DNA from: Laccaria trichodermophora
Lineage: Eukaryota > Basidiomycota > Agaricomycetes > Agaricales > Hydnangiaceae
Assembly (NCBI GenBank): GCA_018417955.1
Contig: JACTVC010000008.1
Coordinates: 992,001-1,056,000, forward strand
DNA: 64,000 nucleotides
Direction: 5' to 3'
The notes beneath the pieces were generated by a model. That model worked only from the letters and a program-made list of their open reading frames with translations. It was not told where the DNA came from and did not search any database. Positions 13,188 to 49,183 of this stretch are shown here, in pieces (position 1 is the stretch's first letter; the number at the start of each line of letters is the position of its first letter). The position numbers and the translations under genes are program-made.

Positions 13188-14770
13188 ATGGGAAGAAGGT
13201 CCCACAGCACCACTGGTATTACCCACTATAACAGGCTTGTTATAAAAAAAAATGGAAGGAGGCATTTTCCCTCCTCCACTGTTCCCTCCCTGCCCTCTTC
13301 TCCTGTAAAAAAGCGGAACTGCAGCCACCTGGAAAGAGACAACGAAACTGGAACTGAAGATTTGCCATACATTGAATACGCCCCTCCTCTTGACAATCCA
13401 CCTCACAAAAACGTAAGATTTCACATCCAATATATCCATATACTAAGAGCTAAATTAACTTTGTTCAGTCATCCAATGATTATATGAGGGTCTGGAAACA
13501 GACGAAACGCAATCTATACCTCCATGAGCTTTTGGAGAGGAAGGCTTCAATCTGTGTTTGTACCATTTGCAAGAAGGAGGCGGCTTGGCGATGTCTGGAT
13601 TGCTTTGCCGGCCCCGCGTATTGTACAGACTGCTGCCGGACATCCCACTGCCGAGACCCATTCCACCGGATTGAACGATGGACCGGCATCTTTTACGAAC
13701 AGAGCTGGCTCTGGAAAGTAGGATTGGTTGTCAACCTAGGTCACCAAGGTGAACGGTGCCCTCAATCAGCCAGAAACTTGGATACCGATTTTGACATGGA
13801 AGAGGACGGATGGTTTGATCTTGAAGACCTTCCTAGCACTTCGGCCGATCCAAAGCCACCAGATAGGGTTTACAATGGTGGCAGGGTCATGACCATCGTC
13901 CATACTTCGGGTGTGCATCACCTGCCGGTCGTCTTCTGTGGATGTTCGGGGGCAGCTGCCGAGGACATACAGTTGTTCCGGGTTGGGTTGTACCCATCCA
14001 CCTACAAGTCTTGCCAAACTGCCTTTACCTTTCAACTCCTCGATGACTACCTGCTGGAAAATCTCGAGTGCAAAACCTCGGCCACCCACTACTACTCCAA
14101 ATTGAGAAGAATCACCAACTTTGCATTTCCAAATTCCATTCCGGTATGTTGTTCAAGATGCTATAACCCTAAACTCAAATGTTTGACAGAACCGGTATCA
14201 CGAGTTGATCAGGGCTGGTAGGCAATATCGTAATCTTACCGAACTGGCTACTTTTGGATTTGGACACAAAGATAAGGCTCCAAGACCAGGGGAGATGGTC
14301 TTTTTTTGCCCAACCTGCCCACAGCCCAGAGTCAATCTGCCTGATGATTGGAATGAAAATCCTGAAGATCCAGAGAATTGGAAGTATACCCGAGGATTTG
14401 TAGCCGATGGCAATTTCACAGCAGCACACCAGAAACAGGCACGACCCGAGGACGATGTTTGGCTGAAAGATGGCCATGGTTTCATGACCCGAAGAGGGCC
14501 CTACTTGAGCCACCTTCGGGACGCCATTGAAGATAATGATGTCAGTTTTATCCTTCGAGCAAGTCGGCCGATGTCTGATTCTTTCAGCCGAGGACATGTC
14601 ATGAGCACGATGCCATCAACAATAAAAATGTATTCCACCGAGGTTTCGATGCTACAGGAATTGGGGCCATCGCTTGCCTTCGCCACGGCACATTTTGTCC
14701 GGGCTCGGTGGTAGATTTTCAAAAGGGAGAACGGTATGGCAGTTATCTTCAGGTTGAACCATTCATTTAC

Positions 14771-14775
14771 GAAAC
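14771..14775 (+). repeat. Left target-site duplication (GAAAC)
   Basis: GAAAC precedes TGTAACGG and matches 26044-26048. Removing one copy plus the element restores a 44-nt intron that runs from GTATGG (14734) to the AAACAG ending at 26050. Confidence 0.92.
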
Positions 14776-15166
14776 TGTAACGGCGAGCTAATGTACTACA
14801 CAGTACTTGCTACTTCCCTTCTTACGTGACCTGGGATCATCATAATATTTACTTGTGTTTATCTATCATTATATAACGTTGTGTACATAACAAGGAGAAG
14901 ACACTTTTGCAACCACATATATATTACATGTGGACGGAGTCACACCCTTTCTGTACGGCTAGGCAGCCATATGCCTCCCCTCCGGGATACAAGAGTCCTG
15001 CGCCGGGTGACTGCGCCCCAGTTCCTGGGTCACAGGATAAACTACGCGTGGTACCGCTTAGCAGCACCACGTTACGAACTCTTTCACGTGTACCACGAAT
15101 ATTCTCTGCAGCCATCTCGCACTCACGCCTTCGTCGAGAAGTCCCGACTCGCCCTACGGTTTCACA
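14776..15166 (+). repeat. 5' LTR (391 bp)
   Basis: It is identical to 25653-26043 except at 15107 (T here, C in the 3' copy). It begins TGTAACGG and ends TTTCACA. Confidence 0.95.
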
Positions 15167-15167
15167 A

Positions 15168-15184
15168 TGGTGGGGGCACCGCGG
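15168..15184 (+). other. Probable primer-binding site
   Basis: TGGTGGGGGCACCGCGG starts one base after the 5' LTR, with the TGG expected to pair with a tRNA CCA end. I cannot name the tRNA. Confidence 0.5.
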
Positions 15185-15266
15185 ACTTCATCAAGATGAA
15201 GTCCCTGAGTGCAGAAGCTCGGAGAAACTACATAAGGCAAGTCAGATCAACAGATCCTGTCAACTC

Positions 15267-18200
15267 ATGACAGTTTCCAGACCTTCCATTTCCCAAGCAA
15301 ACCCAAAACCTAACAGAGGCGAGAAAACCGTTGACCACGCCTCGAACGACGCTCCCATACCCTCGATAGCGCGATCACCCGCTGCTTCCGAGGGTAACAC
15401 TTCGGCTACGTCGAACAATGGTTCTCGGCCTTCAATAATCCAGACGACATCGAAGAATCAATCTCTCCCAACCAACACGAGCTATGCCCAAGGCAGTTGC
15501 ACGAAGAACTGCCAATGTCAGAATTTTGAAAGCCAGAACTTCCTCTCGCAGACAAGCCCTCAACAGTGCGAAGATGAGCCAATTGACGATCTATCCAGCC
15601 AAACCACCCTGGAATCCTCGTTAGCGCGAGATCTCGCAGCTTTCGAGGATGACAGCGCCTCTCGGGTGATTGACAGCTCCTCATCCTCGACTACTCTGTG
15701 TGAAGAGGAAGCCATAAACGACCAGACCACCCAAGTCATTCTCATGCCCTCGATAGCGTGGATAATCACTGCTTCTGAGGGTAATGACTCAGCTACAACG
15801 GACGTCGACTCTATTCCTTCCCCTTCCACGTTAGCGCGTACGTCCGCTGCTCTTGAAGATAACAACTTAGCCACGATGGGCATCGACTTTACATCTTCCG
15901 TACCTACGATAGCGCGATCATCCGCTGCTTTCAAAGGTAATCACCTGGCTATGACAGACAATGGCTTCACGCCGTCGACAACCCTGACCACGTTGAAACG
16001 ACCTCTCCCAACCAACACGAGTGATGCCCGCGGCAGTTGCGCGCAGAACTGCCATCGGCAGGGCTTTGAAAGCCGGGACTCCCACTCGCAGTCAAGCTTT
16101 CAACCGCACGAAAACGAGCCGACCATCGACCTAACCAGTCAATTCCCCCAGGAAACCTTGTCAGCACGAAGTCTCGCAGCCTTCAAGGGCGACAGCGTCT
16201 CTCAGCTCATCGACAGCTCATCGCTTTCGATTACCCTGTGCGAAAATGGGAAGACGGACCAGCAAACTGCCCAAGTCGTTCCTGTACCCTCGATAGTGCG
16301 AATAACCACCACTTCTGAGGGTAATAACTCAGCAACGACAAACGTTGACTCTACTCTTTCCACATCCACGTTAGCGCGTTTGTCCGCTGCTTTTGAGGAT
16401 AACGACTCAGCCAGGATGGGCAATAGCTCGACATCTCTCTCACCTATGCTAGAGCGAATGCTCGCTGCCTTTGAGGGTAGCGGCCCAACTAGGATGAACT
16501 TCAACTCCGTGCTCTTCACGCCCTCGTTAACACTGATACCTGCCGTTTCTGAGGGTGGCCATGCAACCACGACAGACGGCAACTCCATATCTCCCATACC
16601 CTCGTTAGCGCGAAGAACCGCTGCTTCTGAGGGCAATTCCCTATCCATGTTAGTGTATACGCCCACCGTTCTCAAGGCTAACAGCTTGGTCACGATGGAT
16701 GATGGCTCCGTTCCCCCCACACCTTCGATAGCGCGGTCGCTCGCTGCTTTCGAGGGTATCACTTTGGTTACATTGAGCAACAGATCTCGGCTGAGCGAAG
16801 ACGACTCTACGCCTTCCCGACCCTCGTCAGTGCGAACAACGGCCACTTTCGAGAGTAATGTCCGGACCATGAAGGCTGACGACTCCCCGTTTCCCTTACC
16901 CATGAAAGCGCGAACTCTCGCAGCCTTTGAGGGTAACGATCTAGCTAGGATGGAGGCTAGCTCTGTGTCCTTCATACCAGTGTTAGCACAGATGCCTGCT
17001 GCTTTCGTGAGCAACCAAGCATCTGCAACGATAAAGGGCTCTACACCATCTATGACCCCGGCGCCAGCAGGACGACTCAACCACGACGTTCCCAATTCCC
17101 TGAATCCAACGAAATCTACTCTCCCAACCGTCATGAGCTATGCCCGCCACACACGTTCAAGGAACTGTCGCTCTCGGTGCTTTAAGAACTGGAAATTCCG
17201 GACCCTGACAACTCAAGCAATTGTAGTCCATGAGGAATTCCCTCCTTGCCGATGCCCTAATCACTTACGACCACCGATTAAACCTGGTGGCCGCCAACAG
17301 GTCATTCCGTTACCCTACTCAGCGAAATTGACTACCGATCCTTCCAACAACATCACCAATTACGAAATAATAACTCCGATAAGGTGTAGGAAAAAAAGGA
17401 ATGGAGTGTTGGTGATAGAAGAATCCGACTTCAAGGTCAATTATCCCGCTCATAGTAGATTGTTACCCTCGTTGGCGCGGATACTCGCTGCTTCTGAGGG
17501 CAACAGCTCAACCATGAAGGACGATGGCTCTGCGTCTTCGATACTCCTTGTAGTGCTAATATCTACTGTTTCCAAAGTGGCAGAGCGTCTAGATGGTAGT
17601 TTATCAGAACTTCCGAAACTGTTGATCATGAAAAAACCGTTGAAGGGACTAAGCCTCCCAATCTACATGAGTGGCGTTTGCTGCAGCTGCACAAGGAATT
17701 GCTACCCTCAGGACGTCGTAGGCAGGATTTCCCTTGCTCTGTCAGTCCAAACGGTTGTACCCAGGCCGGTAGTAACCCCCTGCCATCGATATCCTATCAT
17801 CCATATGATCCCCCGACCATACGAAGATGAGTCAATCGTTAATCCACCCAGCAAGTTTATACTGGAGTCTCTGTTAGCGCGAAATCTCGCAGCATTCGAA
17901 ATCGACAGCGCCACTCCGCCAAACGACAACTGGTCACCCTCAACAGCTCTGTGTGAAAGTGAGACCGCTGCCTATCAGGCCGTCCATGTCACTCCTAGAC
18001 CAATGTTAGCGCGACTACACGCTGCTTCCAGAGGTAGTAACTCGTTTCAGCTGGACTACGATCTCACGCTTTCAAAGACTCTTACCTCATCTGACCCTCT
18101 AAAGGATAGTATGCTATCGTCTCTCTCAAACGATGCGAGCCGTGCTCACGGCAAACATCCGAGTAACCATGAGACTCGAGAATCTGATGGCTGGAATGCT

Positions 18201-21200
18201 CCAGCTTGGGCGGCTCGAGCTACCCGGAATCCTGAGGAGTTCCCGCTGTACCTACGCCCTAAAGGTCTATCACCGCCGTCTAAATCAGACGACTATTGTC
18301 CGAACCTCCTGCCTCCTCACTTGTTGTGTCAGACAACCCTTTCCGCAGAAGATGAAAACCTGGGTCGTTGGTTCCGCAACATTGATGACCCTGCTAATCA
18401 CGAATCTGTGATTCCAGCAAAAACTGAGGAACATAGTTTCAGTGCCGCCTTCCTCAGGAGCGGCGGTCTTTCATCTCCTTCTGACCCCATACTTTCGGAA
18501 CTGTGCTTGCTAGCCGACCTTGGTCTAGCAGATCCTCCCTTGAGTTCCGCTGCCTATCAAGGCGCGAATCAAAGGCTTGCACCCCGTAAAAGCATGGTTA
18601 AGACACTCGCTGCTCTCGAGAGCGCGGACAACTCTAAAACCGCCATTCCCAACAAGGTGGCGCATAACCCTTTGCCACCCAGCGCGATTCTATTCGTCGT
18701 CGTCCTCCTAATAACTCATTCTAAGATCACGACCGACGAAGATCAAGTGCTATCGCCAAATCGAATCGAGGAAGAAAGCGTGCTAGAAGGACGCGAGAGC
18801 GTGTCTGAATCCCTCTCGTTCACCTGGGACCTCGAATCTGCTTCCTTGCTAAATTTCAGTCATACACCCATATTCGAAAGTATACCGATGAGGCCCCGCC
18901 TCCTGAACAATATGATCTTAGAAAGGATATACTCAGGCACCATTACTTCACTGAGTGCGAATCACTTACCTGCACTTGGTAAAGGTGCAATTAATTCACC
19001 TGCTGCTCTCGCTAGTGCAAATAATCCCATATCGGTCATCCAAAACAAAATGGATCGAAAGCCTTCAACAACGAGCGCGACTTGGCTCGCTGCCTCGGAA
19101 CAAAGTTTGTGGACCCTGACGATAGTGGATCTTGCTCGAACTATCACGGGGAACGAGAACGATCAAAGGAGATTCGCTGAGTCGAGATTCAAGGATTATG
19201 AAACTCAGTTGCCCTCGTCAAGTCGAGCTGAGGCTAGGAATGAACCAGATGTCGTTCGAGGAGAGTGTGAGAGAGCATTCAAGGCTATAGACGAGACACT
19301 TCTACCCCAAATAAAGGATGAATGCGATCAACCAAGGCGTACGATTGAACTAGTGAACAAAACTCCAAAGGAACACTTAAGTCTGGCTAAACAAAGTTTT
19401 ACGAGTTACGACTTCACGACAGAAGACCTAGATAGATGCAACAATCCAGTTGCGGCTGTTAATCAGCTTCGGCGAGTTCTAGCAGGCTTCGTTCTGAATT
19501 GCCGGGTTACCACCTTGCTAATGCTAACTTTGCATACAAGCCGAATCGGAATCCTCACGCCCTGGTTGGCATTGCGACATTCAAATCTAATTGTAGACTC
19601 TAATCGCTCAGTACAAAGGACTGGTGCACTTACACGGAAGCATGGGAGGAATTGCAACAAGGAGACTATCTGTCTTCCCAAATTCGTTACAATGCCCTCG
19701 CTATCTGTCTCTGGTAATGGAACTACTAGAAATGGAGCGAGAAGGTTATTGGCGAAGCTGAAGTATTTCAACAAAATGCAAAAAAACTTGTCCGAAATGA
19801 CTATACACCGGCGTAGTCGAGCTTATAAGGATTTCCAGATCTCGATGGATTTTACGGCCCTCCACCCTTGCAGAAGGCTGAATGAAAGGGAGGCCGAATC
19901 AGATGCTGTCAGGAAATCGTCGAACTCCGCTACGGGACTAAATCTTACGCGAAGGTCCATGTCGAGTGAAAGTCCAAGTGTCAGATATGCTCTAATGCAG
20001 TTGCCAGAGGCGGGGATGATAGGAGTAACCATCCCAGGAATCTGTCCAGTGAAAATGATGATTTTGCTTAATGAACCAAAGACGGTGACTCCTATTAACC
20101 ATAATAATAAACTTGGGGTGCCTGCTGCGTACAGAACGCGCATACCAAGTCCTAAAACTTGGATCGGCTATACCTATTGGCTTAAGAGGAATCAATCGCG
20201 CACCACGCGTGTTGCGGTAGTAGTTCTGATGAAGACGAAAACCAAACTGAAGACCTATTCATCGAACAAAGAGCCAGAAAGGAATGCGAGCCTCATTAAC
20301 CTAACCAAGATCAAGACGAGAGCTCCGCAGGCTGGGGGGCTGAAAGCAGGATCTATAAGGGAATTCCGGCCGGAGAGGTCGATGGGTGCGGATTCCTCCA
20401 AGCTGAAGGACACTAGCCCTGTCCTCGGACAGCTACTCAAAGATGACTACGTCCTAATGTCTTGGAATCCAGCGTACGGAGAGGTAGTCGATACACCGCG
20501 CCCAGTAAAGTTGGCAGAGACTAGAACCTCAAGTCCAGCCTACGAGAATGATCAAATACCCGAACGAGTCGTAAAGGAAATTCATTCATCATCAGGACGT
20601 TCAAGAGAATTGCTCGCCGCTATAAAGCGCGAACAATCCGCTGCGAACTCGCGCGAGAATACAATTCGAATCCCGTCTCCTTCCTATACAGAGTACCTTC
20701 GAATATATCCAGTCCATCTCAGGGAACGAAAAAAGAAGGATCATGATGGAAGGAAAGATCCCGAATTCAACACCATTCCCAAAACCTTTAAATGTCCCTT
20801 ATCAAGGCTAACGGAGCGATCATGCGAACCAGAACAAGTGCTCCCAGCTATTGAGAGTCAATCGATGCCAGGGAGGAAGGATCCCCGAGAAACTAGAGCT
20901 CAGCGAGTCCGAACAAAAGTTGACAGATTAGACTCCGATTCAGAATGGACCAAAACTCGGTTAGACCCGGGATCATTTATCGCTGTCATCATGGTAGAAT
21001 ATTGGATATCCTCGACAAATGCGCCCCATCTGCAAGGAAGCATGAGAATTAAGTTATACCTTCTCGTAAGAGGAACGAAGATCTTGAGTTGCATCGAAAT
21101 CAATCCTTATGTCCCAGCGCAAGAGGAATTGACCACCAACCAGGGACTCAAACACTGCGTAGTAAGAAATTTGAACGTTCCCCTTATACAAGGAAAGGAC

Positions 21201-24200
21201 TCTGTGACTACGTACAGATGGAGCATCGCCAGATATGCTACAAGACATCGTGTAATGCTAGGAGGATGGTTTGAAGGGCGCGTGATATCCGCAGCCTCTG
21301 CTCAGAACCCCTATGTCGGATTTGAAATCCAAACGGCACCGGTGGCTCAAACTTTCATCTGGAAAAAAGCAGTAACCCCAGCGGAACTGAAGAAAGTTGG
21401 CAAGAAAGAACGCGCGAAAGTGGTAGCCATGGACGACACCTTTAACCTACTAGTGCCCTATCCCATTCGCACAGCATCAGATGGCCAAGACAGTAGGATA
21501 GTAGAGAAGACTGTCTTAAGCAACGCTAGTCCACCCCTGCGACATGTGGGAGTAGAAGTCATTAAAATCCTATGGGACCTCGATGTAACGGTTGACAACT
21601 TACCTCTAAATGCGAAACATCCCAACAAGATAGTGGCGTCCACCGAGGCACCCAAAATAACTATACGAGCAGTATCAAGAGTTCAATGTTTAGCAACCGT
21701 TAAGGATCTAATAGTGGACACTCCTGAGGACGACAACAGTCTCGAGGGCGGTCCTGATGAGTCGCGGGAACCCACGGAAGACCCGTTAAGCGGTTTTATG
21801 AACAAGATATTGAAATTCGAATCTGGCTTACCTGAGGACTCGGAGTATCGAGAGCTGTTAATCGAAGCGCTGCACAGAAAAGCCGCAGCTTCCAGGACCA
21901 ACTATTACATAGGGTACATAGAAGCGCGAGTCCATTCCCCGCCGCTCCTTAACACCCAGTCGAGTTCTGAATCAAGAATTGAAGACGGAATAGTTGAGCC
22001 ATCTGTCAGCTCAGAGGAACTTTCAGCGATTATCATCTACCAGAAGCTTAACTCGAGATTCAAGCTTAACAGACTCGGATACCCAACGCTTCGACAATTG
22101 GAAACTGCACAGGTGTCATTGGTAGTTCAAGCGCTATTGTCCTTTGATGTTTTAGCAAGATTCACCCGACGAATAATGAAAAAGAAATCTAAGGAGGAGA
22201 CTACCATATGTTATCCGTTAAGACTATGGCAGTTCAAGAAACCACCATCTAGTCCCTGGACCGAACCCACACAGCTGGAAATTGGACGACTGGACAGATG
22301 GGGGGCTACTTCAGTGGACGAATCTACTGTCCACATGGAACAGGTGGACACTTACCAAAGTAGAACATTAAGACCGACAGGACAAAAGCACAACACCGCG
22401 GAACACGAAGCCCTCACCATGACCATGAGAGAGGACCACGACGAATACACTGCCCTAGTCCGAGTGCGAGTTTACGAAGATGCCGGTCGTCTCGGAGTGG
22501 CAGTGTGGGGGGCGGCGTTGGCCGTTTACTCAGACCTTGAAATTGTACACCGAAGAGCAGTGTCTGTCGCTTGCCCAGACCAAAGGATTCAACACCGAAT
22601 CGAACAAGAGGAAATTGCCTTGATGCTAGTAACCGTTCACGATGCCCTAGTCTGGGCGCGAGCTTATGGAGATGCCAACAATCGAGTAGCAGAATGGGGA
22701 GCAGAGTTTGCCACTTGCACAGACCCTAGAACTGTACGACAGAAAGTTGTGAAACAAGACACTACTGAAAGAGTGGAGGATAGAAATTTCAGGGTAGCAC
22801 TAATTAAGGATCATGTCCGCCTCAGCCCCGAAATTGCACCCGGCACTGGGTGCTTAGCCGTGCGTAGAATGTGTCCGCGCTTGGATCATGAGCTTGTGGA
22901 GAGACATGAGCGGAAGAATCGATATACGGTCGCTGGCATGCCCTCAGGCGTCAACACGGATAGAATGGCATGGTTGGAATTTGATACACCGGCGGCTAGA
23001 GACATCAACCGAATCATTGCGCAGACTATTGGTGCCCATCAGTCTCAAGCCAATTCGGCCAGGACGCCTAAGCCTACTCCGTATGCCTTGCAATGGGAAG
23101 ATCTCATCGGGAAGAAAGCTTCAAGCATTTGTACCAGATGGGAGCTCGCAGCTGAAGTAAAGCGCGGAACCCAGATAGAAACCAGAAACATCTCATCGTT
23201 CTCCAAAACGGACTCATACCATCAGACTCACTGTCCGATAGAAGAAAAACCTCTCGAATTATCACTGGATAGAGATTGTCTAAAACAATTACTACTACCC
23301 TGCTTTGCTCAGGTTCAACATATTAAAGTGCAGCCCAACGAGAAATCTGTTATTTCTGTGAGCAATTACCACGGAGAACCGAATGAACTTCCATATAAAA
23401 TCAATGCCAGATGGAAATTACGTCCGCATATACCCGAGCTAGCCGTCGACTGTGTATTGTGCGGGACGCGTGGATCTCCAAAGGAGGGTACACATACAGG
23501 ATCCCGCCGCTTTATAGCGCGACTACAACAATTGTTATTACAGTCTTCTAGTAGGAATAAGGATGCTGAAGCCCACTCACCCGAGTCAAATCGCTATGAC
23601 CATCAGAAGATTAACTCTATCTGCCGAGTTTTAGTGAACGCACTACCACCCTTGCATGCCTTGTCACAGCCCTCCCCAATAGTGACGATAGTCATGTCAA
23701 CAGGGCTACCAGCCTCAAGTGAACAAGAAGAGTTCACTAAAGTTTTCATTGGAAAAGTCATCAATGTTTATGGGTTCCCTAAGTCGATAGTCTCAGATCA
23801 AGACGAACTTAGAGTATTGTGGAAACGAGCAATTGCTATTTGTGGCAGCCTCGTAACGCCTTCATTTACTTTCCCCCTGCAAATGGAAGGACAGACAGAA
23901 ATCTCCAAGACTACCATAAAGCGGACGCTTCGCGCTTATGTCTTCGCGGTGGAAGAAAGTCAGATGATCGAGCTCGACGTACTAGCCTACTCATGCACTG
24001 TTAGCAGCATCATAAGCGTTCCTGCTAAATATTCTCGGAACCGACTACTATCAAGGGAACGTAACCCAAGAATCTCTGAGGGCATGATAATTCCTGAAGA
24101 CAACTCTCTGCACGAGCCCCTCCTACTTGGTCAAACGTTCAAAAACTTTATCAAAGATCTGATATTCCATCGAAGCACAGTCAAGATCGTTATTACCTTG

Positions 24201-25406
24201 ACTCCTAGCAAAGAATGGAGAATGGTGATAATTTCACTTGCTGCGGGCAATCCGCGCAATAATCCTAAGTACGAACCTACCTTTAGTTGTTGGAGGAACG
24301 ATGGAGTCCCGACCTTTGTTACTGGAAGAATCCATGATGAAACTCTGCCCAGAATTCGTGACCACTTCCACTTCCTCGGATCAGTACACACAGCCTTACG
24401 AAGTGTCAGAACCTATCCCATTGAATTCGCTCCCAAGATTATCTATTCTTTACGAAGTCGCAGACAATTTCCCCTAGCCATCGATTGGACTACTGAGGAT
24501 CAAAGAGACATCCTGTTTTGGGCACCGATGAACCCCGGCGACATGGAGAGCTTCCATCGCGTCACGATACGAGAGGCTACATCCCCTAAGCGCGAGCAAC
24601 TCGCTGCTCAAAAAAGGAAAACGATGATCGACTCTGCGACAAAGACTACGACCACTTCGATTCGCTGCGCCCTGTCCTTCCATGACCAAAATTGGACTGG
24701 GTTCAGAATAGAGACTGGCATCGACTTCACGGCCTTCCCTACTGAAGATGGACAACAGATCAAGCTCCTTCCAGTAAGATTTAGTGATAAATTCCACCTG
24801 GATGAAATCCTTCTAGACGGATCTGCAAAGGGCTCTACCGATCATCAGATCCGCTCTGTGTACAATCAGGGAGAGGGTTGCCAAACACTGCCCCTCCGAT
24901 CTCTCAATGACCCCCTCAGTCATTTAGTGGATCCGAATCAATATAGACGACCATGCCTGGAAGGTACTTGTAAAGATCGAACCGAAAAGCAACACGTTCA
25001 ACCTAGTCGGATCCACAACCATGTGGAGCCTAAGTCTACCAATGTAATGGAGGAAAATCCCATTCCCCAAACCAAGGAATTGCCTCTCTCGAAGTTCCTT
25101 CATTTAACCCCAGGAGCCGATAGCTATGGTTATGACAATTTCTATCCTGGTTCAAGTGATACTGAGGGATGCACCAAGAACCACTTCGAGGAAATCAATA
25201 TCTCCGCAAAGAGCGCGATAGTTAGACCCGCTGCTCAAAACTCTGGACGAAGACCCGCCATCTCTAACTCAACCTATCATTGCTTCTGGTCTCTCGTTCT
25301 CCTTCATCACCTGGAGACATTTCACCTACGGCTATCAGGCCAAGACTTGTACTGCATCCGGGAATATCCTTCCCATTCCGGCACATCGCCATCTGTCACC
25401 AGCTAA
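15267..25406 (+). CDS. Giant single-exon ORF of the LTR element (3379 aa from this start; open from 14907 inside the LTR)
   Basis: The frame is open without a stop for 10.5 kb, from inside the 5' LTR (ATG at 14907, 3499 aa) to 25406. I chose the ATG at 15267 because it lies just after the LTR and primer site. About the first 900 residues are Ser/Thr-rich and built from degenerate repeats of the type A-R-x-(L/S)-A-A-(F/S)-E-G-N. One unit of about 180 aa is duplicated in tandem (about 15440-15965 and 15985-16440), with a third copy near 17630-18050. The middle is charged and not recognised. Near 23,690-23,940 there are remnants of a gypsy integrase core: a LPASSEQEEFTKVFI-type stretch, SIVSDQDE and GQTEIS..TLRAY. 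The first catalytic aspartate region looks lost. No RT (Y-x-D-D), zinc HHCC or clear protease is visible. Whether it is translated is unknown. Confidence 0.6.
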   Translation: MTVSRPSISQANPKPNRGEKTVDHASNDAPIPSIARSPAASEGNTSATSNNGSRPSIIQTTSKNQSLPTNTSYAQGSCTKNCQCQNFESQNFLSQTSPQQCEDEPIDDLSSQTTLESSLARDLAAFEDDSASRVIDSSSSSTTLCEEEAINDQTTQVILMPSIAWIITASEGNDSATTDVDSIPSPSTLARTSAALEDNNLATMGIDFTSSVPTIARSSAAFKGNHLAMTDNGFTPSTTLTTLKRPLPTNTSDARGSCAQNCHRQGFESRDSHSQSSFQPHENEPTIDLTSQFPQETLSARSLAAFKGDSVSQLIDSSSLSITLCENGKTDQQTAQVVPVPSIVRITTTSEGNNSATTNVDSTLSTSTLARLSAAFEDNDSARMGNSSTSLSPMLERMLAAFEGSGPTRMNFNSVLFTPSLTLIPAVSEGGHATTTDGNSISPIPSLARRTAASEGNSLSMLVYTPTVLKANSLVTMDDGSVPPTPSIARSLAAFEGITLVTLSNRSRLSEDDSTPSRPSSVRTTATFESNVRTMKADDSPFPLPMKARTLAAFEGNDLARMEASSVSFIPVLAQMPAAFVSNQASATIKGSTPSMTPAPAGRLNHDVPNSLNPTKSTLPTVMSYARHTRSRNCRSRCFKNWKFRTLTTQAIVVHEEFPPCRCPNHLRPPIKPGGRQQVIPLPYSAKLTTDPSNNITNYEIITPIRCRKKRNGVLVIEESDFKVNYPAHSRLLPSLARILAASEGNSSTMKDDGSASSILLVVLISTVSKVAERLDGSLSELPKLLIMKKPLKGLSLPIYMSGVCCSCTRNCYPQDVVGRISLALSVQTVVPRPVVTPCHRYPIIHMIPRPYEDESIVNPPSKFILESLLARNLAAFEIDSATPPNDNWSPSTALCESETAAYQAVHVTPRPMLARLHAASRGSNSFQLDYDLTLSKTLTSSDPLKDSMLSSLSNDASRAHGKHPSNHETRESDGWNAPAWAARATRNPEEFPLYLRPKGLSPPSKSDDYCPNLLPPHLLCQTTLSAEDENLGRWFRNIDDPANHESVIPAKTEEHSFSAAFLRSGGLSSPSDPILSELCLLADLGLADPPLSSAAYQGANQRLAPRKSMVKTLAALESADNSKTAIPNKVAHNPLPPSAILFVVVLLITHSKITTDEDQVLSPNRIEEESVLEGRESVSESLSFTWDLESASLLNFSHTPIFESIPMRPRLLNNMILERIYSGTITSLSANHLPALGKGAINSPAALASANNPISVIQNKMDRKPSTTSATWLAASEQSLWTLTIVDLARTITGNENDQRRFAESRFKDYETQLPSSSRAEARNEPDVVRGECERAFKAIDETLLPQIKDECDQPRRTIELVNKTPKEHLSLAKQSFTSYDFTTEDLDRCNNPVAAVNQLRRVLAGFVLNCRVTTLLMLTLHTSRIGILTPWLALRHSNLIVDSNRSVQRTGALTRKHGRNCNKETICLPKFVTMPSLSVSGNGTTRNGARRLLAKLKYFNKMQKNLSEMTIHRRSRAYKDFQISMDFTALHPCRRLNEREAESDAVRKSSNSATGLNLTRRSMSSESPSVRYALMQLPEAGMIGVTIPGICPVKMMILLNEPKTVTPINHNNKLGVPAAYRTRIPSPKTWIGYTYWLKRNQSRTTRVAVVVLMKTKTKLKTYSSNKEPERNASLINLTKIKTRAPQAGGLKAGSIREFRPERSMGADSSKLKDTSPVLGQLLKDDYVLMSWNPAYGEVVDTPRPVKLAETRTSSPAYENDQIPERVVKEIHSSSGRSRELLAAIKREQSAANSRENTIRIPSPSYTEYLRIYPVHLRERKKKDHDGRKDPEFNTIPKTFKCPLSRLTERSCEPEQVLPAIESQSMPGRKDPRETRAQRVRTKVDRLDSDSEWTKTRLDPGSFIAVIMVEYWISSTNAPHLQGSMRIKLYLLVRGTKILSCIEINPYVPAQEELTTNQGLKHCVVRNLNVPLIQGKDSVTTYRWSIARYATRHRVMLGGWFEGRVISAASAQNPYVGFEIQTAPVAQTFIWKKAVTPAELKKVGKKERAKVVAMDDTFNLLVPYPIRTASDGQDSRIVEKTVLSNASPPLRHVGVEVIKILWDLDVTVDNLPLNAKHPNKIVASTEAPKITIRAVSRVQCLATVKDLIVDTPEDDNSLEGGPDESREPTEDPLSGFMNKILKFESGLPEDSEYRELLIEALHRKAAASRTNYYIGYIEARVHSPPLLNTQSSSESRIEDGIVEPSVSSEELSAIIIYQKLNSRFKLNRLGYPTLRQLETAQVSLVVQALLSFDVLARFTRRIMKKKSKEETTICYPLRLWQFKKPPSSPWTEPTQLEIGRLDRWGATSVDESTVHMEQVDTYQSRTLRPTGQKHNTAEHEALTMTMREDHDEYTALVRVRVYEDAGRLGVAVWGAALAVYSDLEIVHRRAVSVACPDQRIQHRIEQEEIALMLVTVHDALVWARAYGDANNRVAEWGAEFATCTDPRTVRQKVVKQDTTERVEDRNFRVALIKDHVRLSPEIAPGTGCLAVRRMCPRLDHELVERHERKNRYTVAGMPSGVNTDRMAWLEFDTPAARDINRIIAQTIGAHQSQANSARTPKPTPYALQWEDLIGKKASSICTRWELAAEVKRGTQIETRNISSFSKTDSYHQTHCPIEEKPLELSLDRDCLKQLLLPCFAQVQHIKVQPNEKSVISVSNYHGEPNELPYKINARWKLRPHIPELAVDCVLCGTRGSPKEGTHTGSRRFIARLQQLLLQSSSRNKDAEAHSPESNRYDHQKINSICRVLVNALPPLHALSQPSPIVTIVMSTGLPASSEQEEFTKVFIGKVINVYGFPKSIVSDQDELRVLWKRAIAICGSLVTPSFTFPLQMEGQTEISKTTIKRTLRAYVFAVEESQMIELDVLAYSCTVSSIISVPAKYSRNRLLSRERNPRISEGMIIPEDNSLHEPLLLGQTFKNFIKDLIFHRSTVKIVITLTPSKEWRMVIISLAAGNPRNNPKYEPTFSCWRNDGVPTFVTGRIHDETLPRIRDHFHFLGSVHTALRSVRTYPIEFAPKIIYSLRSRRQFPLAIDWTTEDQRDILFWAPMNPGDMESFHRVTIREATSPKREQLAAQKRKTMIDSATKTTTTSIRCALSFHDQNWTGFRIETGIDFTAFPTEDGQQIKLLPVRFSDKFHLDEILLDGSAKGSTDHQIRSVYNQGEGCQTLPLRSLNDPLSHLVDPNQYRRPCLEGTCKDRTEKQHVQPSRIHNHVEPKSTNVMEENPIPQTKELPLSKFLHLTPGADSYGYDNFYPGSSDTEGCTKNHFEEINISAKSAIVRPAAQNSGRRPAISNSTYHCFWSLVLLHHLETFHLRLSGQDLYCIREYPSHSGTSPSVTS
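15360..18050 (+). repeat. Degenerate internal repeats in the giant ORF
   Basis: The DNA phrase AGCGCG followed by about 3-6 nt and then CTCGCTGCTT(T/C)(C/T)GAGGGTAAC recurs roughly every 70-130 nt and encodes A-R-x-x-A-A-(F/S)-E-G-N. On top of this, a unit of about 540 bp is tandemly duplicated. Shorter echoes (GCGCGA near CTCGCTGCT) occur as far as 25220. Confidence 0.7.
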
Positions 25407-25652
25407 ACAATTCAAGTCCTGTTTCAACCTCTGAGCCCCAATACTCTTGTCACCTTAGGATTACTATCCAATGCTCCGCAGCCTTATGGCACAAAAATTA
25501 ACTTCCGTGGGCGGACCCCTTTAGGAAACACGATAGTCTGGTCTTGCCTCTGGGTGTCTCCCTTTCCAGCAACCCTCGCGGAAACAACTCCTAGTGCTCA
25601 AATACCTCAACCTTCGTGCCCATGGACGATGCTCCCAGCTCACGGGGGGCTT
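25407..25652. other. 3' untranslated part of the LTR element with polypurine-like tract
   Basis: There are 246 bp between the ORF stop and the 3' LTR. A GGGGGG run at about 25644-25649, immediately before the LTR, is the best candidate for plus-strand priming. It is short and flanked by pyrimidines, so this is weak. Confidence 0.45.
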
Positions 25653-26043
25653 TGTAACGGCGAGCTAATGTACTACACAGTACTTGCTACTTCCCTTCTT
25701 ACGTGACCTGGGATCATCATAATATTTACTTGTGTTTATCTATCATTATATAACGTTGTGTACATAACAAGGAGAAGACACTTTTGCAACCACATATATA
25801 TTACATGTGGACGGAGTCACACCCTTTCTGTACGGCTAGGCAGCCATATGCCTCCCCTCCGGGATACAAGAGTCCTGCGCCGGGTGACTGCGCCCCAGTT
25901 CCTGGGTCACAGGATAAACTACGCGTGGTACCGCTTAGCAGCACCACGTTACGAACTCTTTCACGTGTACCACGAATATTCTCCGCAGCCATCTCGCACT
26001 CACGCCTTCGTCGAGAAGTCCCGACTCGCCCTACGGTTTCACA
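25653..26043 (+). repeat. 3' LTR (391 bp)
   Basis: It is the direct copy of 14776-15166 with one transition (C at 25984). It is followed by the duplication GAAAC. Confidence 0.95.
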
Positions 26044-26048
26044 GAAAC
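26044..26048 (+). repeat. Right target-site duplication (GAAAC)
   Basis: It matches 14771-14775. The next two bases, AG, form the 3' splice site of the interrupted transposase intron. Confidence 0.92.
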
Positions 26049-30909: not shown

Positions 30910-31654
30910 GATTCCAAAGATTTTGGGCAAATTTGAAAGGACATTGATGGGGACCTGCCCAGGCACAAGTTGAAGCCCCATGCTCGGGCCTACTTTCTAA
31001 TCGTGTCCTGGGCCGGAAGTATCCAGTTAAGGCTCACTAAAATCTCCTGACCAAAATTATCTTGCAACACTGACTTGGCCTAGTCGTCATGGTGGAAGGT
31101 GCTTCATGATCTATGTGTATATGCCCTGGGTTCAAATCCCACACAAGTCATTCTCATGACATTTAATACTTGATTTTTGCACCGGTTGTCTTATGGCCCG
31201 GGTTCACCCCCCGAACAAGTAAGTCAGTGCCGACCTTGCAGGCCCTGATTCAGTATGCCCCAGCTTCAAATGCCGAACACGTTTACTTCTATTAGAATGA
31301 TTGTTGACCAGCATTTTGTTGTAAGATTGACTTGGCTTAGTGGTTAAGGTGGCATGTGTACGTAGTGCATCTGCTCGGGTTCAAATCCCAAACAAGTCAG
31401 TGCTTGTACATCTTCGAATATTTTTTACATACATTGCTATACGGTCGCCAGCTAAGAGATACTGACCAAGAGTTTGTTGCGACATTGACTTGGCTTATTG
31501 GTTAAGATGGCAGGTGTACTTAGTGTATCTCTGTATGCCCTGGGTTCAAATCCCGAAAAAGTCGTTCATTCTTCTCCACTATTTTTTACTTACTGCTATT
31601 ATTAGAAGTGACATGGTTGGCATCCATTCCCTCTTACAAACTACCGAGCTTGCA

Positions 31655-32215
31655 GAGTTAGGCCGAGAACGGGTAGTTGTCTTAGGCCGAGAACCTGTTG
31701 TCTTAGGCCGAGAACGGGTAAGTTACAAAGTGCCGAGCGGTTTAAATCATCGTCTTCCAAGATCTGGTCCCTAGAAGGGGTTGTTGTCTTTTGCCGAGAG
31801 CGGGTAAGTTACAAAGTACCAAGCAGATTGTCTTGGTAGTCATCTTCGGCCGAGAATGCGTAAAGTTACCAAGTGCCGAGCTTGCAGGCCCAGGTTCAAT
31901 TCATCGTCCGCTGAATTGACTGGAGAGTGACCAACATTTCTAGAACGGGTAGTTGTCTTCTTAGGCCGAGAACTAGTTGTCTTTGGCCGAGAACGGGTAA
32001 GTTACAAAGAGCAGAGTGGTTCAAATCATCATCTGGTCCCTAGAAGGGGTTGTTGTCTTGTGCCGAGAGTGGGTAGTATACAAAGTACCGAGCAGATTGT
32101 CTTGGTAGTCATCTTAGGCCGAGAACGTGTAAAGTTACCAAGTGCCGAGCTTGCAGGCCCAGGTTCAATTCATCGTCTTCCGAATTGACTGGAGATACTG
32201 ACCAACATTTCGCAA
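31655..32215 (+). repeat. Tandem repeat of about 280 bp rich in GGCCGAGAACGGG
   Basis: Two long units (about 31655-31935 and 31945-32215) share TTAGGCCGAGAAC, CCCTAGAAGGGGTTGTTGTC, AGCAGATTGTCTTGGTAG and GTGCCGAGCTTGCAGGCCC in the same order. A shorter third version lies at about 32890-33185. No coding capacity is evident. Confidence 0.75.
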
Positions 32216-32649
32216 CATTGGCTTGGCTTAGTGGTTAAGGTGGCAGGTGTATGTAGTATGCCCAGGTTCAAATCCCAAACAGGTCATTGCTTGGACATCT
32301 TCAAAAACTTATTGCTATTAGAGTCACATGGTCGGCAGGTAAAAGATACAGACCGACATCCTCTTCCCCTTTGGCTTGGCTTATTGATTAAGCTGGGAGG
32401 TGTGTGTAGTATATGTATGTATGCCCTGGGTTCGAATCCCGAACAAATTTTTTACTTACTGCTATTATGGTCGGCAGCCAAAAGATACTGACCGACGTCG
32501 TCTTCCAACGTTGGCTTAGCTTAGTGATTAAGCTGGGAGGTGTACAGAGTGTCTGAATGCCCTGGGTTCGAATCCCAGAAGTCAGTTACACCTATCAAAA
32601 CTCTTTTGTTAAAATTTACTAATCAATGCTAGTTTGACCGATATCTTGT

Positions 32650-44517: not shown

Positions 44518-47500
44518 TCAATAAATTACAAATTTACAAGAAGACTTAAACTGACCATTTTGATCAAGATCAGACTGCCATAATCCCAAGTCTTCATCAT
44601 GACTCCCATGAGCCAAGCAAAAATTAGAGCTGACCTGTGATGTATAGCCTTGAAAAACACCTGAAATAGAATTGTCTGCATGTGCATCCCACACTCTAAT
44701 GGTCATATCATTTGATCCAGAAACAAATTGTTTTCCATCAGGAGAGAATGCCACAGATGTAACTCTATCAGTGTGGCCTTCAAATGAGCCTGCAACAAGA
44801 TCTCCTGTGTGTGCATCCCACAATCTAATGGTCTTATCATTTGATCCAGAAATGATGTATTTTCCATCATGAGAGAATGCAACAGACATGACCTGATCAG
44901 TGTGGCCTTCAAATGGACCTGAAACAAGATTTCCTGTATATGCATCCCACACTCTAATGGTCATATCATTTGATCCAGAAACAAAGTGTTTCCCATCAGG
45001 AGAGAATGCAACAGAGTTGACTGATTGGGTGTGACCTATAAATGGGCCTGAAACAAGATTCCCAATGTGTGCATCCCACACTCTAATGGTCATATCATCT
45101 GATCCAGAAACAATGTGTTTTCCATCAGGAGAGAATGCAACAGACCCAACCCAATCAGTGTGGCCTTCAAATGGACCTGACACAAGATTTCCTGTATATG
45201 CATCCCACACTCTAATTGTCATGTCATGTGACCCAGAAACAATATGTTCTCCATCAGGAGAGAATGCAACAGAATTGACTGATTGGGTGTGACCTTCAAA
45301 GGGACCTAAAACACAATTTCCTGTATATGAATCCCACACCCTGATGGTCATATCATGTGATCCTGAAACAATATGTTGTCCATCAGGAGAAAATGCAACA
45401 GACATGACCCAAATAGTGTGGCCTTGAAATGGACCAGAAACAAGATTTCCTGTGTATGCATCCCACACTCTAATAACCATATCATCTGATCCAGAAGCAA
45501 TGTGTTTTCTATCAGGAGAGAATGCAACACAGTTGACTGACAGGGTGTGACCTTGAAATGGATATGAACAAAGACTTTCTGCATATGCATCCCACACTCT
45601 AATGGTCATATCATATGGTCCAGAAACAATGTGTTTTCCATCAGGAGAGAATGCCACAGACCTGACTGAATGAGTGTGGCCTTCAAATGGGCCTGAAACA
45701 AGATTTCCTGTATCTACATCCCACACTCTAATTGTCATATCATGTGATCCAGAAATAATGTGTTTTCCATCAGGGGAGAATGCAACAGAATTGACTGACA
45801 GGGTGTGACCTTTAAATGGACCTGAAATAAAATTTCCTGTGTGTGCATCCCACACTCTAATGGTCATATCATCTGATCCAGAAGCAATGTGCTTTCCATC
45901 AGCAGAGAACACAACAGAATTAACTGACAGAGTGTGACCCTTGAATGGATCTGTAAAAAGGTTTCCTGTGTGTGCATCCCACACCCTAATGGACATATCA
46001 TCTGATCCAGAAACAATATGTTTCCCATCAGGAGAGAATGCAACAGAGTTGACTGACAAGGTGTGACCCTTAAAAGGACCTGAAACAGGATTTCCTGTGT
46101 GTGCATCCCATACTCTGATGGTCATATCATCTGATCCAGACACAATGTGCTTTCCATCAGGAGAGAATGCAACAGACCTGACTGAATGAATGTGGCCTTC
46201 AAATGGACCTAAAACAAGACTTCCTGTATGTACATCCCACACTCTGATGGTCTTATCATGTGATCCAGAAATAATGTGTTGTCCATCAGGAGAAAAGATA
46301 ACAGAGTTGATGTGAGTGTAGCCTTTAATAGGATGTGAAACAAGGTTTCCTGTGTGTGCATCCCACACTCGAATAGTCATATCATCTGATCCAGAAACAA
46401 TGTGCTTTCCATCAGGAGAGAATGCAACAGACTTGATCAGATTAGTATGCCCATGCATGACATTAATAATTGATGGCCATGATTTTGTTCTCCCCTTTGC
46501 AAAAGACACCAGACCCTTATAGTAGGGTAGATATTTTTTAGCAATAAGAGACTCAGTTGGTGCAAATGGTAATGCTGATAAATAAATATGAGGAGCACTC
46601 TCAGTGATTGGTTGAGCAAAGCTGTTGACAAACTTGATGGCATCTTCAATAAGATCTGTGCATTTTCCATTTTTCTGAACAAATGTCATTTAGAATAGTT
46701 CCTTATAGAGTGGCCTATCTTACCTTGAGCCATTTTGATATTTCTGAAAGTGTATTGTGTGCAGTCCATAGTCTTTTTGTTACACTCAAAACCTCCAGCC
46801 AAGATAAAAATTGTCTATCCATGAAGGTGTTCAACTCTTCTTCAAAAACATTCTCCCATGCAACCATTTTAAGATGCTCTGCAAAGAAAACACAGGAATA
46901 AAACAGCTGTGATGAGATCTTATCAGATAGATTGATCAAGTGATTATCATTTGTTTTGTAGGATGAAGGGATTTTGCAGATGTTAAAATGAAGCTCAGTG
47001 TTGAGAATGTGCAGACATGTAAGAGCAAAATTTCTTTCAGCTTCATATGTGTCAATGTAAAAGTCTTCACTTTTTGAGGAGCAAGTCAGAAAATTCTGAA
47101 AGGAGCTGTGCAATGGCTTTATAGGATCATCATTCATCTTGATGCTAGACAGTAAACAACCCAATGGTTGGATAATTGCCTGGGTCTCTTCTCTTGTTAA
47201 CTTTACAACATGCATTTGTGACAATGTTGACAGTGATAATGGTTCTTTGGCTGTCAGAATCCTGCCTATCACTGACTGGTAACGGCCCATTACTGTAGGT
47301 GTGATTTTAGGAAAAGCTTGTTTCAGAACTTGACAGTACAGATTATCCAAGCCTTTTCCTTCTTGAAGAACAGATTTTAAATGCTCAACAACAGTCATCC
47401 CTTCATATGAAGTAATGTCATCACAAGCAACAGCTACCCATTGAAACAGGCCTTCTGCACTCTTTACAAGCAGCCTGCACCATTGGTCATTTGGCCACTC

Positions 47501-49183
47501 AGTTTCAAGTTCAGAAAATGCGGCAAGTCTACTCTTGATATAAAGAGAAAGATCATGCTCATTGCTCTCACTTTCCATCTCAGAAGCATGTATCTCCTTG
47601 TGTTTGATGTATTGATGAGGCATCTCAAGAATTTTTGATACATCAGGTTCAGGCTGTGTGGTTACCAAAACACAAAAGTTTTTTGGCAACTTTGCAGCTC
47701 CCTTGACAAGTATATCCAGAAGAGGTTGTCTTTTTTTGAGACTACCACTTTCATCCAGAGCATCAATCACAAGAACAATAGGCCCAACATTAGTTAGGGC
47801 TAAACCAGGCTTGACAATAAAGTTCTCAAATTGTGCCTGTAGTGACTGAGTAGTGCAAAGAGCTGGATTCTCAGAAATCACAGAACAGAGAGCAGACTGC
47901 CAGTACTTATCAAGCCCAGAAATATCCTTAGAGATGGTGCTAAAGAGATATTCAATCCTTCGATTCTCTTGTTCAGCTTGGTCAAAGCAATGTGATGAAC
48001 CTAGACAATGCAATCCATCAAAATGATAAGCAACAGTATGAGCAATAGCTGATTTTCCAAAGCCTGCCATAGCAGTCAAAAATAGAACCCATGGAGTCTC
48101 ATCACCATCAGGACTATCAATCCAGCTAATTAGTTCATCAAGAATAGATCCACGTGTTCCAGGGAGATATTTCTTATCAGGATCAAAGCGAGCACCCTTG
48201 GCATAGCACATGTCTCTGAGATCTGCAGCTGCACCTGAAATTGAATGATTTTAGTTACCAAAATTCTGAAATAAAAATAAAATAAAATAACCAAGTTTCT
48301 CCAGAGTGTAAACCATCCGCAAAACGGTAAGCTGAGTATCCTGAATGGCATAATCATTAAAAGCTAACTTGAGTTTCTTGAATTGATCTTGATAGTTCTG
48401 AATTTCTTGGTCTGTATTTGAGGCTAAATTCTTTCCAGTCTGTTTCCCTAGGAGGCAAAAAGTATATCAATTAGTAATTTGAAGATTTTAAAATTAAAAA
48501 GCATACAAAAGTTTGTGATGCCAGCATAATCACAAATAAAGTATGCACATTCTGTGGTCTGCTTGGCTAGAAGGGTGACAACCTCCTTCTGTTGATCACC
48601 ATACTCAAATGGTTTTGCTTGATTGATATATTTGTACAAGTCTTGAATTTCCTGTAGAAGATTGGTAATTTTGGCATCACGTTCAATCTGCCCCAGAGCA
48701 GTCTAGCATATGCATGAGATCTAAAAATAGATCATCCAATGTGAACCAACATACCTTGGGAATAGCAGATAGAATAAACCAAGCTGCCTTGGCATATGGA
48801 TGGACCTATGAAAGTAAATTTCAGAGATTATAGACAGGTCATTTGCTTACCTCAGCTAGCTTATATACAGCATTAGCAAAAAATTTGACATTCTCAACCA
48901 TAGTGTTGTATGCAGTGGAGAAAGCATCAGAAGAGACTGTACTGATAGCAGTGTCAAGAATAGATGCAGCACCCTGTGGGCCAGCTTCCATTCTTTTAAC
49001 AGTACCTTCAGCTGAACCTAAAGCAGAAGTGAAATCTGACATGACTTGAGTGTTAAAATCAACTTGAGGTGAAGAAACCTTGATGGGTGTTAGACAGTAT
49101 TCATGAGAATAATGTAGCCTTCTCACAACAGGAATGCCAATCTCTGGCAAGATAGATACAAAAAAATTAATGGTGGTAGCCAT
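44518..49183 (-). CDS. STAND/NLR-like protein: helical N-terminal domain, NACHT NTPase, 14 WD40 repeats
   Basis: There are six exons on the minus strand, starting at 49183 (MATTINFFVS) and ending at 44518, with short introns near 48850-48806, 48754-48703, 48508-48449, 48296-48240 and 46724-46676. The N-terminal 190 residues are helical, with HPYAKAAWFILSAIPK and TTECAYFICDYAG stretches like the Goodbye-type domains of fungal STAND proteins. The NACHT domain has Walker A (AMAGFGKSAIA) and Walker B (VLVIDALDESG). The C terminus carries 14 WD40 repeats of 43 aa plus a degraded fifteenth. The repeats are strikingly alike, mostly GHT..V.SVAFSPDGKHI.SGS.D.TIRVWDA. Such proteins are fungal counterparts of innate-immunity receptors and control self/non-self responses. 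The whole gene is almost free of CpG although its frame is intact. Confidence 0.9.
44650..46458 (-). repeat. Fourteen 129-bp WD40-coding repeats
   Basis: Units of exactly 129 bp encode 43-aa WD40 blades. They differ mainly at a few positions, including the residue pair after GHT (NL, HI, HS, LS, IW, QS, DW, DQ, DR). High similarity with variable contact positions is known in fungal NWD genes and reflects repeat exchange plus diversification. Confidence 0.9.

What the first reader, a model, noticed from the sequence alone, without database searches (positions are those of the whole stretch)
14907..25406. A 10.5-kb stop-free reading frame in a retrotransposon without a recognisable RT
A frame of about 3,500 codons cannot survive by chance, yet the predicted protein has no clear gag, protease or reverse transcriptase and only eroded integrase fragments. 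One explanation is selection on openness rather than on protein sequence: a non-autonomous genomic RNA with a full-length frame would escape nonsense-mediated decay. Another is a new repeat-built structural protein. Either would be an undescribed kind of element.
Basis: partly seen in the sequence, partly recalled or inferred. Interest (0 to 1): 0.9.

Follow-up and report, generated by a model that had tools for sequence, protein, structure and literature searches.

The report
Jumping element keeps dead gene stop-free
In a fungal genome, several families of parasitic mobile elements have lost the recognisable enzymes of their ancestral gene, yet copies of that gene's 10-kilobase reading frame are still free of stop signals, as if the copied RNA must be readable from end to end although the protein itself no longer matters.

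Summary
In detail: window 14907-25406 is stop-free for 3,499 codons, while the other forward frames hold 202 and 204 stops. It fills a recently inserted LTR retrotransposon (391-bp LTRs, one mismatch, 5-bp target duplication). Against an intact relative in the same genome it is a decayed Ty3/gypsy gag-pol frame: patches of protease, RT, RNase H and integrase align, but the YIDD region and other catalytic parts are gone.

At least six subfamilies of such RT-less elements, 53-61% identical in DNA within clades, each have a copy open for about 3,150-3,560 codons. They form two clades with different pol deletions, so pol was probably lost at least twice. Unconstrained drift over that distance leaves about 70 stops per lineage. 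Codon patterns match simulations in which only stops are forbidden and differ from coding elements.

So selection appears to act on openness, not on protein sequence. Most likely the genomic RNA must be translatable end to end in cis. Nonsense-mediated decay is the leading but untested cause; a missense-tolerant filler protein is not excluded. Half of the 46 detected 5' ends have first frames under 2,000 codons, and most of those could not be read.

The parts
14771..14775 (.). target-site duplication GAAAC, left
   Evidence: GAAAC directly before the 5' LTR and directly after the 3' LTR
14776..15166 (+). 5' LTR, 391 bp, TG...CA
14870..14877 (+). TATA-like box in the LTR (inferred promoter)
   Evidence: position; function inferred
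14928..14930 (+). first ATG of the long frame, inside the LTR; conserved in the A, B, C24 and B7 LTRs aligned
14907..25406 (+). stop-free frame, 3,499 codons (stop to stop from 14877); decayed gag-pol frame
15168..15180 (+). putative primer-binding site just inside the 5' LTR
   Evidence: position after the LTR and sharing with RT-bearing elements; function inferred, primer tRNA not identified
15184..15203 (+). inverted repeat GACTTCATC-AA-GATGAAGTC, conserved hairpin next to the primer site (packaging or dimerisation signal inferred)
   Evidence: 85 sites in the genome with up to 3 mismatches over a 46-base pattern; predicted stem, z -2.55
15446..16479 (+). 540-bp-spaced tandem duplication (two blocks, 75% alike) in the repeat-rich N-terminal part
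18942..20192 (+). stretch homologous to residues 379-884 of the intact relative (upstream of its gag domain)
   Evidence: 28% identity over 515 columns, E 1.6e-29
20451..22247 (+). decayed protease and N-terminal RT (residues 1309-1954 of the intact relative)
   Evidence: 35% identity over 669 columns, E 1.6e-84; protease DSG reads DPG
22248..22277 (+). junction where RT palm with YIDD, RT C-terminus and the first RNase H part (relative's residues 1963-2182) are missing
   Evidence: borders approximate
22278..22808 (+). decayed RNase H remnant
   Evidence: 33% identity over 195 columns, E 3.5e-14
23004..24215 (+). decayed integrase remnant
   Evidence: 32% identity over 482 columns, E 2.0e-48; internal deletion and altered catalytic region
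25641..25652 (+). putative polypurine tract before the 3' LTR
   Evidence: position; function inferred
25653..26043 (+). 3' LTR, 391 bp, one mismatch to the 5' LTR
26044..26048 (.). target-site duplication GAAAC, right

Best explanation
This is a recently mobile, non-autonomous relative of a Ty3/gypsy element with a chromodomain. It keeps the LTRs, primer site and leader hairpin and is presumably copied by proteins from RT-bearing relatives in the same genome. Its ancestral gag-pol frame lost its catalytic parts through deletions and missense change and then drifted with little or no measurable selection on the protein. Copies that acquired stops or frameshifts did not found the long-lived lineages seen here, so the frame stayed open for more than 3,000 codons. 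Shown here: the element anatomy, pol descent and decay, openness in at least six subfamilies of two clades, and divergence matching openness-only simulations. Inferred: the genomic RNA must be translated, or be translatable, almost to its end in cis to be copied. The most likely reason is decay of RNAs with early stops; coupling of translation to packaging or localisation is next.
For: Anatomy and recency: 11 of 11 copies (the window copy and ten fetched by LTR similarity) have 5-bp target duplications and LTR pairs with 0 (9 copies) or 1 (2 copies) mismatch (for four I shifted one or two ambiguous bases at the LTR edge). Openness: 7 of these 11 are uninterrupted from the ATG to within 746 bases of the 3' LTR, 3 carry one private stop, and 1 is cut by a nested insertion at codon 2962. 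Six subfamilies have copies with 0 stops in frame against 180-212 in each other forward frame. Descent: W aligns to the intact relative across PR-RT, RNase H and IN; catalytic blocks are missing, and the two clades lack different blocks. Little protein constraint: 7 of 7 within-clade pairs have a third-position ratio of 1.10-1.15 and omega 0.50-0.57. Twelve openness-only simulations gave 1.07-1.18 and 0.47-0.63. Twelve omega=0.3 simulations gave 1.55-2.06 and 0.15-0.21. Four autonomous pairs (one of whole frames, three of RT-centred pieces) gave 1.52-5.16. Low divergence: W-A4 has 60 nonsynonymous and 24 synonymous changes against 55.4 and 26.1 expected, with similar results in three other pairs. 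Expected stops without selection: mean 67-71 per lineage at 0.34 substitutions per site, minimum 51 in 40 runs. Partners: the leader motif is shared with RT-bearing elements (positions; at least 20 cases by eye).
Against:: of 46 detected 5' ends of this lineage, 17 sit in a frame of 2,900 codons or more and 23 in one of 2,000 or more; 23 are shorter. Of four further copies fetched by similarity and not for openness, all four are interrupted: B7 (359 then 2,732 codons), B8 (2,101 codons, then another frame, although 99.8% like B2), C24 (two stops) and C77 (several). Most other short ones could not be read, and two on C1 share a 324-codon first frame, which may be an interruption that was passed on. 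Within family A stops are not clearly depleted: W against A4, A3 and A5 shows 0, 1 and 1, with 2.5-3.1 expected each, so selection shows only on long branches. Frame ends lie from 0 to about 1.6 kb before the 3' LTR, and two RT-bearing relatives have about 3.7 kb after their main frame, which does not suit a simple rule about 3'-UTR length. The first 140 codons show a slight third-position excess (75, 63, 91 differences summed over seven overlapping pairs). Second-position G and glycine stay a little lower than openness-only drift from the intact relative predicts. Mini-Ty1 elements without most internal sequence transpose (PMC4974528, passages), and wheat non-autonomous RLC_Angela elements spread with many stops (PMC9744471, passages), so the requirement is not general.
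Confidence: 0.72

Rival explanations
1. The frame encodes a long protein whose bulk, length or rough composition matters but whose exact sequence does not (a disordered tail or filler that helps the element's RNA or particle). Stops are harmful because they shorten the protein.
For: Compatible with the sequence results. Residual bias at codon position 2 and low glycine in all six open subfamilies compared with openness-only drift. Slight third-position excess in the first 140 codons. The N-terminal repeat units are shared with the intact relative.
Against: Frame length and end point vary: 3,151-3,565 codons and 0 to about 1.6 kb from the 3' LTR. Beyond the first 200 codons no window has a clearly raised third-position ratio in all seven pairs.
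Confidence: 0.17
2. No selection on openness: these are recently inactivated copies of coding elements that have simply not had time to gather stops.
For: LTR pairs are nearly identical, and at the tips stops are not clearly depleted (three single stops among 11 copies; 0, 1 and 1 against 2.5-3.1 expected in W comparisons).
Against: The subfamilies are 53-61% identical at DNA level within clades with a neutral-like codon pattern. Unconstrained drift over that distance gives 51-84 stops per lineage. Each clade has its own shared pol deletions, so pol was already lost before the subfamilies split.
Confidence: 0.05
3. A fast-evolving functional protein under positive or relaxed selection, for example a new structural or interference protein.
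For: Nonsynonymous changes are slightly above neutral expectation in three of four low-divergence pairs: 60 against 55.4, 47 against 42.6 and 9 against 5.7; 16 against 15.9 in the fourth.
Against: Excess small; long-range pairs fit neutrality with stops barred over most of the length. No Pfam match in four frames scanned (best E 0.16), and for the window frame no relative in the PDB sequences or the large protein collection. The sequence is derived from pol enzymes with missing cores.
Confidence: 0.06

Closest known systems
Intact Ty3/gypsy elements with a chromodomain in the same genome (example C12:3357122, read as L044)
   Same: Same frame layout starting inside the LTR; N-terminal region, repeat units, leader hairpin and primer site shared; collinear over the region before gag, PR, RT, RNase H and IN
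   Different: The intact relative has RVT_1, RNase H, integrase zinc finger, SH3 and chromodomain hits above cut-off; the four RT-less frames scanned have none. Protein constraint is present among autonomous pairs, not detectable over most of the frame here
Athila non-autonomous families of Arabidopsis (PMC2410132, passages seen)
   Same: pol-less elements that keep intact open frames and multiply with help from relatives
   Different: Athila gag/env frames are reported under purifying selection; here no purifying selection on protein was detectable over most of the frame and no gag domain is recognisable
Non-autonomous RLC_Angela, RLG_Sabrina and RLG_WHAM of wheat (PMC9744471, passages seen)
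   Same: Non-autonomous LTR elements that co-evolve with autonomous partners; RLC_Angela of similar size to its partner
   Different: Wheat RLC_Angela non-autonomous copies are described as highly degenerate with numerous frameshifts and in-frame stops; here lineages keep the dead frame open
Coronavirus defective interfering RNAs selected for a large open frame (title of Kim, Lai and Makino 1993 seen in a reference list; de Groot 1992 and clover yellow mosaic virus work recalled, not read)
   Same: A helper-dependent genome kept open although its proteins are not needed
   Different: RNA virus genomes selected in passage, not an integrated retroelement diverging over long time; a tombusvirus defective RNA instead evolves by losing a translation enhancer (PMC3185524, passages)
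LARD and TR-GAG non-autonomous LTR elements (recalled)
   Same: Non-autonomous LTR elements with long interiors or partial coding
   Different: LARDs have no long frame and TR-GAG keeps a functional gag; neither describes an open but non-coding pol frame (recalled, not tested)

Membership tests
LTR retrotransposon | Direct terminal repeats TG...CA with target-site duplication | tested here: met
   11 of 11 copies
LTR retrotransposon | Primer-binding site and polypurine tract at the LTR borders | tested here: inconclusive
   Candidate sites by position and by sharing; primer tRNA not identified
Ty3/gypsy (Metaviridae), by descent | pol order PR-RT-RNase H-IN and sequence descent | tested here: met
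   collinear alignment with an intact element whose RT, RNase H and IN Pfam hits are in that order
Ty3/gypsy autonomous element | Intact RT with YxDD, RNase H and integrase catalytic residues | tested here: not met
   no domain; YIDD block and first RNase H block absent in W
Athila-like coding non-autonomous element | Retained frame under purifying selection on protein | tested here: not met
   only a slight third-position excess in the first 140-200 codons
LARD (large retrotransposon derivative) | Non-autonomous, long interior without coding capacity | tested here: inconclusive
   Non-autonomous, and little coding constraint seen, but a frame spanning nearly the whole interior is kept open
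Defective-interfering-like helper-dependent RNA genome | Depends on a helper; openness needed in cis | not testable with these tools
   Helper sharing of leader and primer site seen; cis requirement inferred from evolution only

The most novel reading that the evidence does not exclude
A class of translation-licensed mobile elements: after losing gag and pol, helper-dependent retroelements in this fungus repeatedly evolved under a regime in which the only selected property of a frame of more than 3,000 codons is that it contains no stop. Such giant open frames are then not genes, and an open frame alone is no evidence of a protein.
Probability: 0.6. Interest if true: 0.9.

Novelty: new variant of a known kind. 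Interest (0 to 1): 0.83.

Why it matters
A long open reading frame is normally taken as proof of a protein. Here long-term maintenance of openness is separated from maintenance of protein sequence, in several lineages at once. That gives a natural assay for how fungal cells or retroelement particles check whether an RNA can be translated, and it warns against annotating such frames as genes. It also turns an old question, whether a retroelement's genomic RNA must pass through the ribosome before it is packaged, into something testable by comparing copies.

Full report
What is there. The window lies in a 59-Mb genome of 77 contigs, at C76:992001-1056000. Gene content (NACHT and WD40 ORFs, KDZ transposase cysteine cluster) suggests a mushroom-forming fungus; the species is not given. 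The frame at 14907-25406 is real: 3,499 codons from TTG, 3,509 stop to stop, first ATG at 14928. The other forward frames hold 202 and 204 stops. It fills the interior of an LTR retrotransposon: LTRs of 391 bp with one mismatch, TG...CA, target duplication GAAAC. The frame begins inside the 5' LTR and ends 246 bases before the 3' LTR.

Copies. An LTR search scored 40 of 179 candidates. I fetched ten further copies from it: four close ones (family A: A2-A5, 97-98% LTR identity) and six of family B (88%). With the window copy (W), 11 of 11 have 5-bp target duplications and LTR pairs differing at 0 (9 copies) or 1 (2 copies) positions (for A2, A4, A5 and B4 I moved the printed border by one or two ambiguous bases). 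All are recent insertions. From the ATG, 7 of 11 are open to within 746 bases of the 3' LTR: W, A4, B1, B2, B3, B5 and B6. Three carry one private stop (A3 codon 528, A5 codon 2062, B4 codon 525). A2 is open to codon 2962, where another element is inserted; its part beyond was not assessed. In family B the last 519 bases before the LTR (746 in B1) do contain stops, so the opened stretch has an end.

What else is conserved. The leader just after the LTR is nearly invariant and holds the inverted repeat GACTTCATC-AA-GATGAAGTC. With up to three mismatches a 46-base leader pattern has 85 sites and none for its reversed control. Comparing by eye with the RT places, at least 20 sites lie 5-6 kb upstream of an RT in the same orientation (for example C30:9348 with RT at C30:3515, and C12:3357354 with RT at C12:3362750). 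These RT-bearing elements are the likely helpers. The first 140 codons are 88-97% identical within clades. Differences there, summed over seven overlapping pairs, are 75, 63 and 91 at the three codon positions: mostly RNA-like conservation, with a slight third-position excess that leaves room for weak protein constraint. The 0-200-codon window has ratios of 1.19-1.59 in all seven pairs; no later window is clearly raised in all seven.

How it most likely works. Shown: non-autonomous structure, recent mobility, pol decay, openness with little or no protein constraint. Inferred: an RNA that stops translation early is not copied. In yeast Ty1, translated and packaged RNA appear to come from one pool, and a minimal level of translation may be needed for Ty1 RNA stability (PMC3945221, passages). 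That makes translation-linked filtering of genomic RNA plausible. Decay of RNAs with early stops is my first choice (about 0.45 of the total), coupling of translation to packaging or localisation second (about 0.25), a sequence-tolerant filler protein third. Against a simple 3'-UTR-length rule: frames end from 0 to about 1.6 kb before the 3' LTR, and two RT-bearing relatives (one with a stop near its start) have about 3.7 kb between frame end and 3' LTR (a third listed there has a shorter frame and was not used). The same Ty1 paper says that decay factors are themselves needed for Ty1 transposition.

Known relatives. Wheat non-autonomous RLC_Angela elements spread with many stops and frameshifts (PMC9744471, passages). 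Athila pol-less families keep frames under purifying selection (PMC2410132, passages). Mini-Ty1 elements move without most internal sequence when helped (PMC4974528, passages). The nearest parallel is coronavirus defective RNA selected for a large open frame (only a title seen, in the reference list of PMC9610340; related work by de Groot and by White is recalled). I found no description of an open but protein-neutral retroelement frame in the listings of searches; most subscription papers are outside that library.

Noticed in passing
window 44518-48211 (-): A 723-aa ORF made of about 14 WD40 repeats encoded by 129-bp units (82% matches), next to a NACHT/NPHP3_N ORF (46715-48211): looks like a NACHT-WD40 innate-immunity type gene of fungi, possibly split by an intron or stop.
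   Followed up: partly
window 31327-32446: Three repeat copies with tRNA-like A- and B-box-like motifs (my reading) and a 269-bp tandem repeat; SINE-like, no Rfam match.
   Followed up: partly
window 13484-14221 (+): CxC2 cysteine cluster associated with KDZ transposases, just upstream of the element.
   Followed up: no
window 15184-15203 and 85 genome places: Perfect 9-bp inverted repeat beside the primer site, shared by RT-bearing and RT-less elements; candidate packaging or dimerisation hairpin.
   Followed up: partly
L041, L008 and L040 (C34:64600-76500): Another autonomous gypsy element with a 2,671-codon frame followed at once by a second 904-codon frame shifted by +1.
   Followed up: no
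C19:499762, C34:3047760 and C34:2957607: RT-bearing relatives are about 12.7 kb from ATG to the 3' LTR ATG; two have about 3.7 kb of unexplained sequence after the main frame.
   Followed up: no
C1:3920639 and C1:4057034: Two shorter elements of this lineage both with a 324-codon first frame; possible mobile subfamily with an interrupted frame. Sequence could not be fetched.
   Followed up: partly
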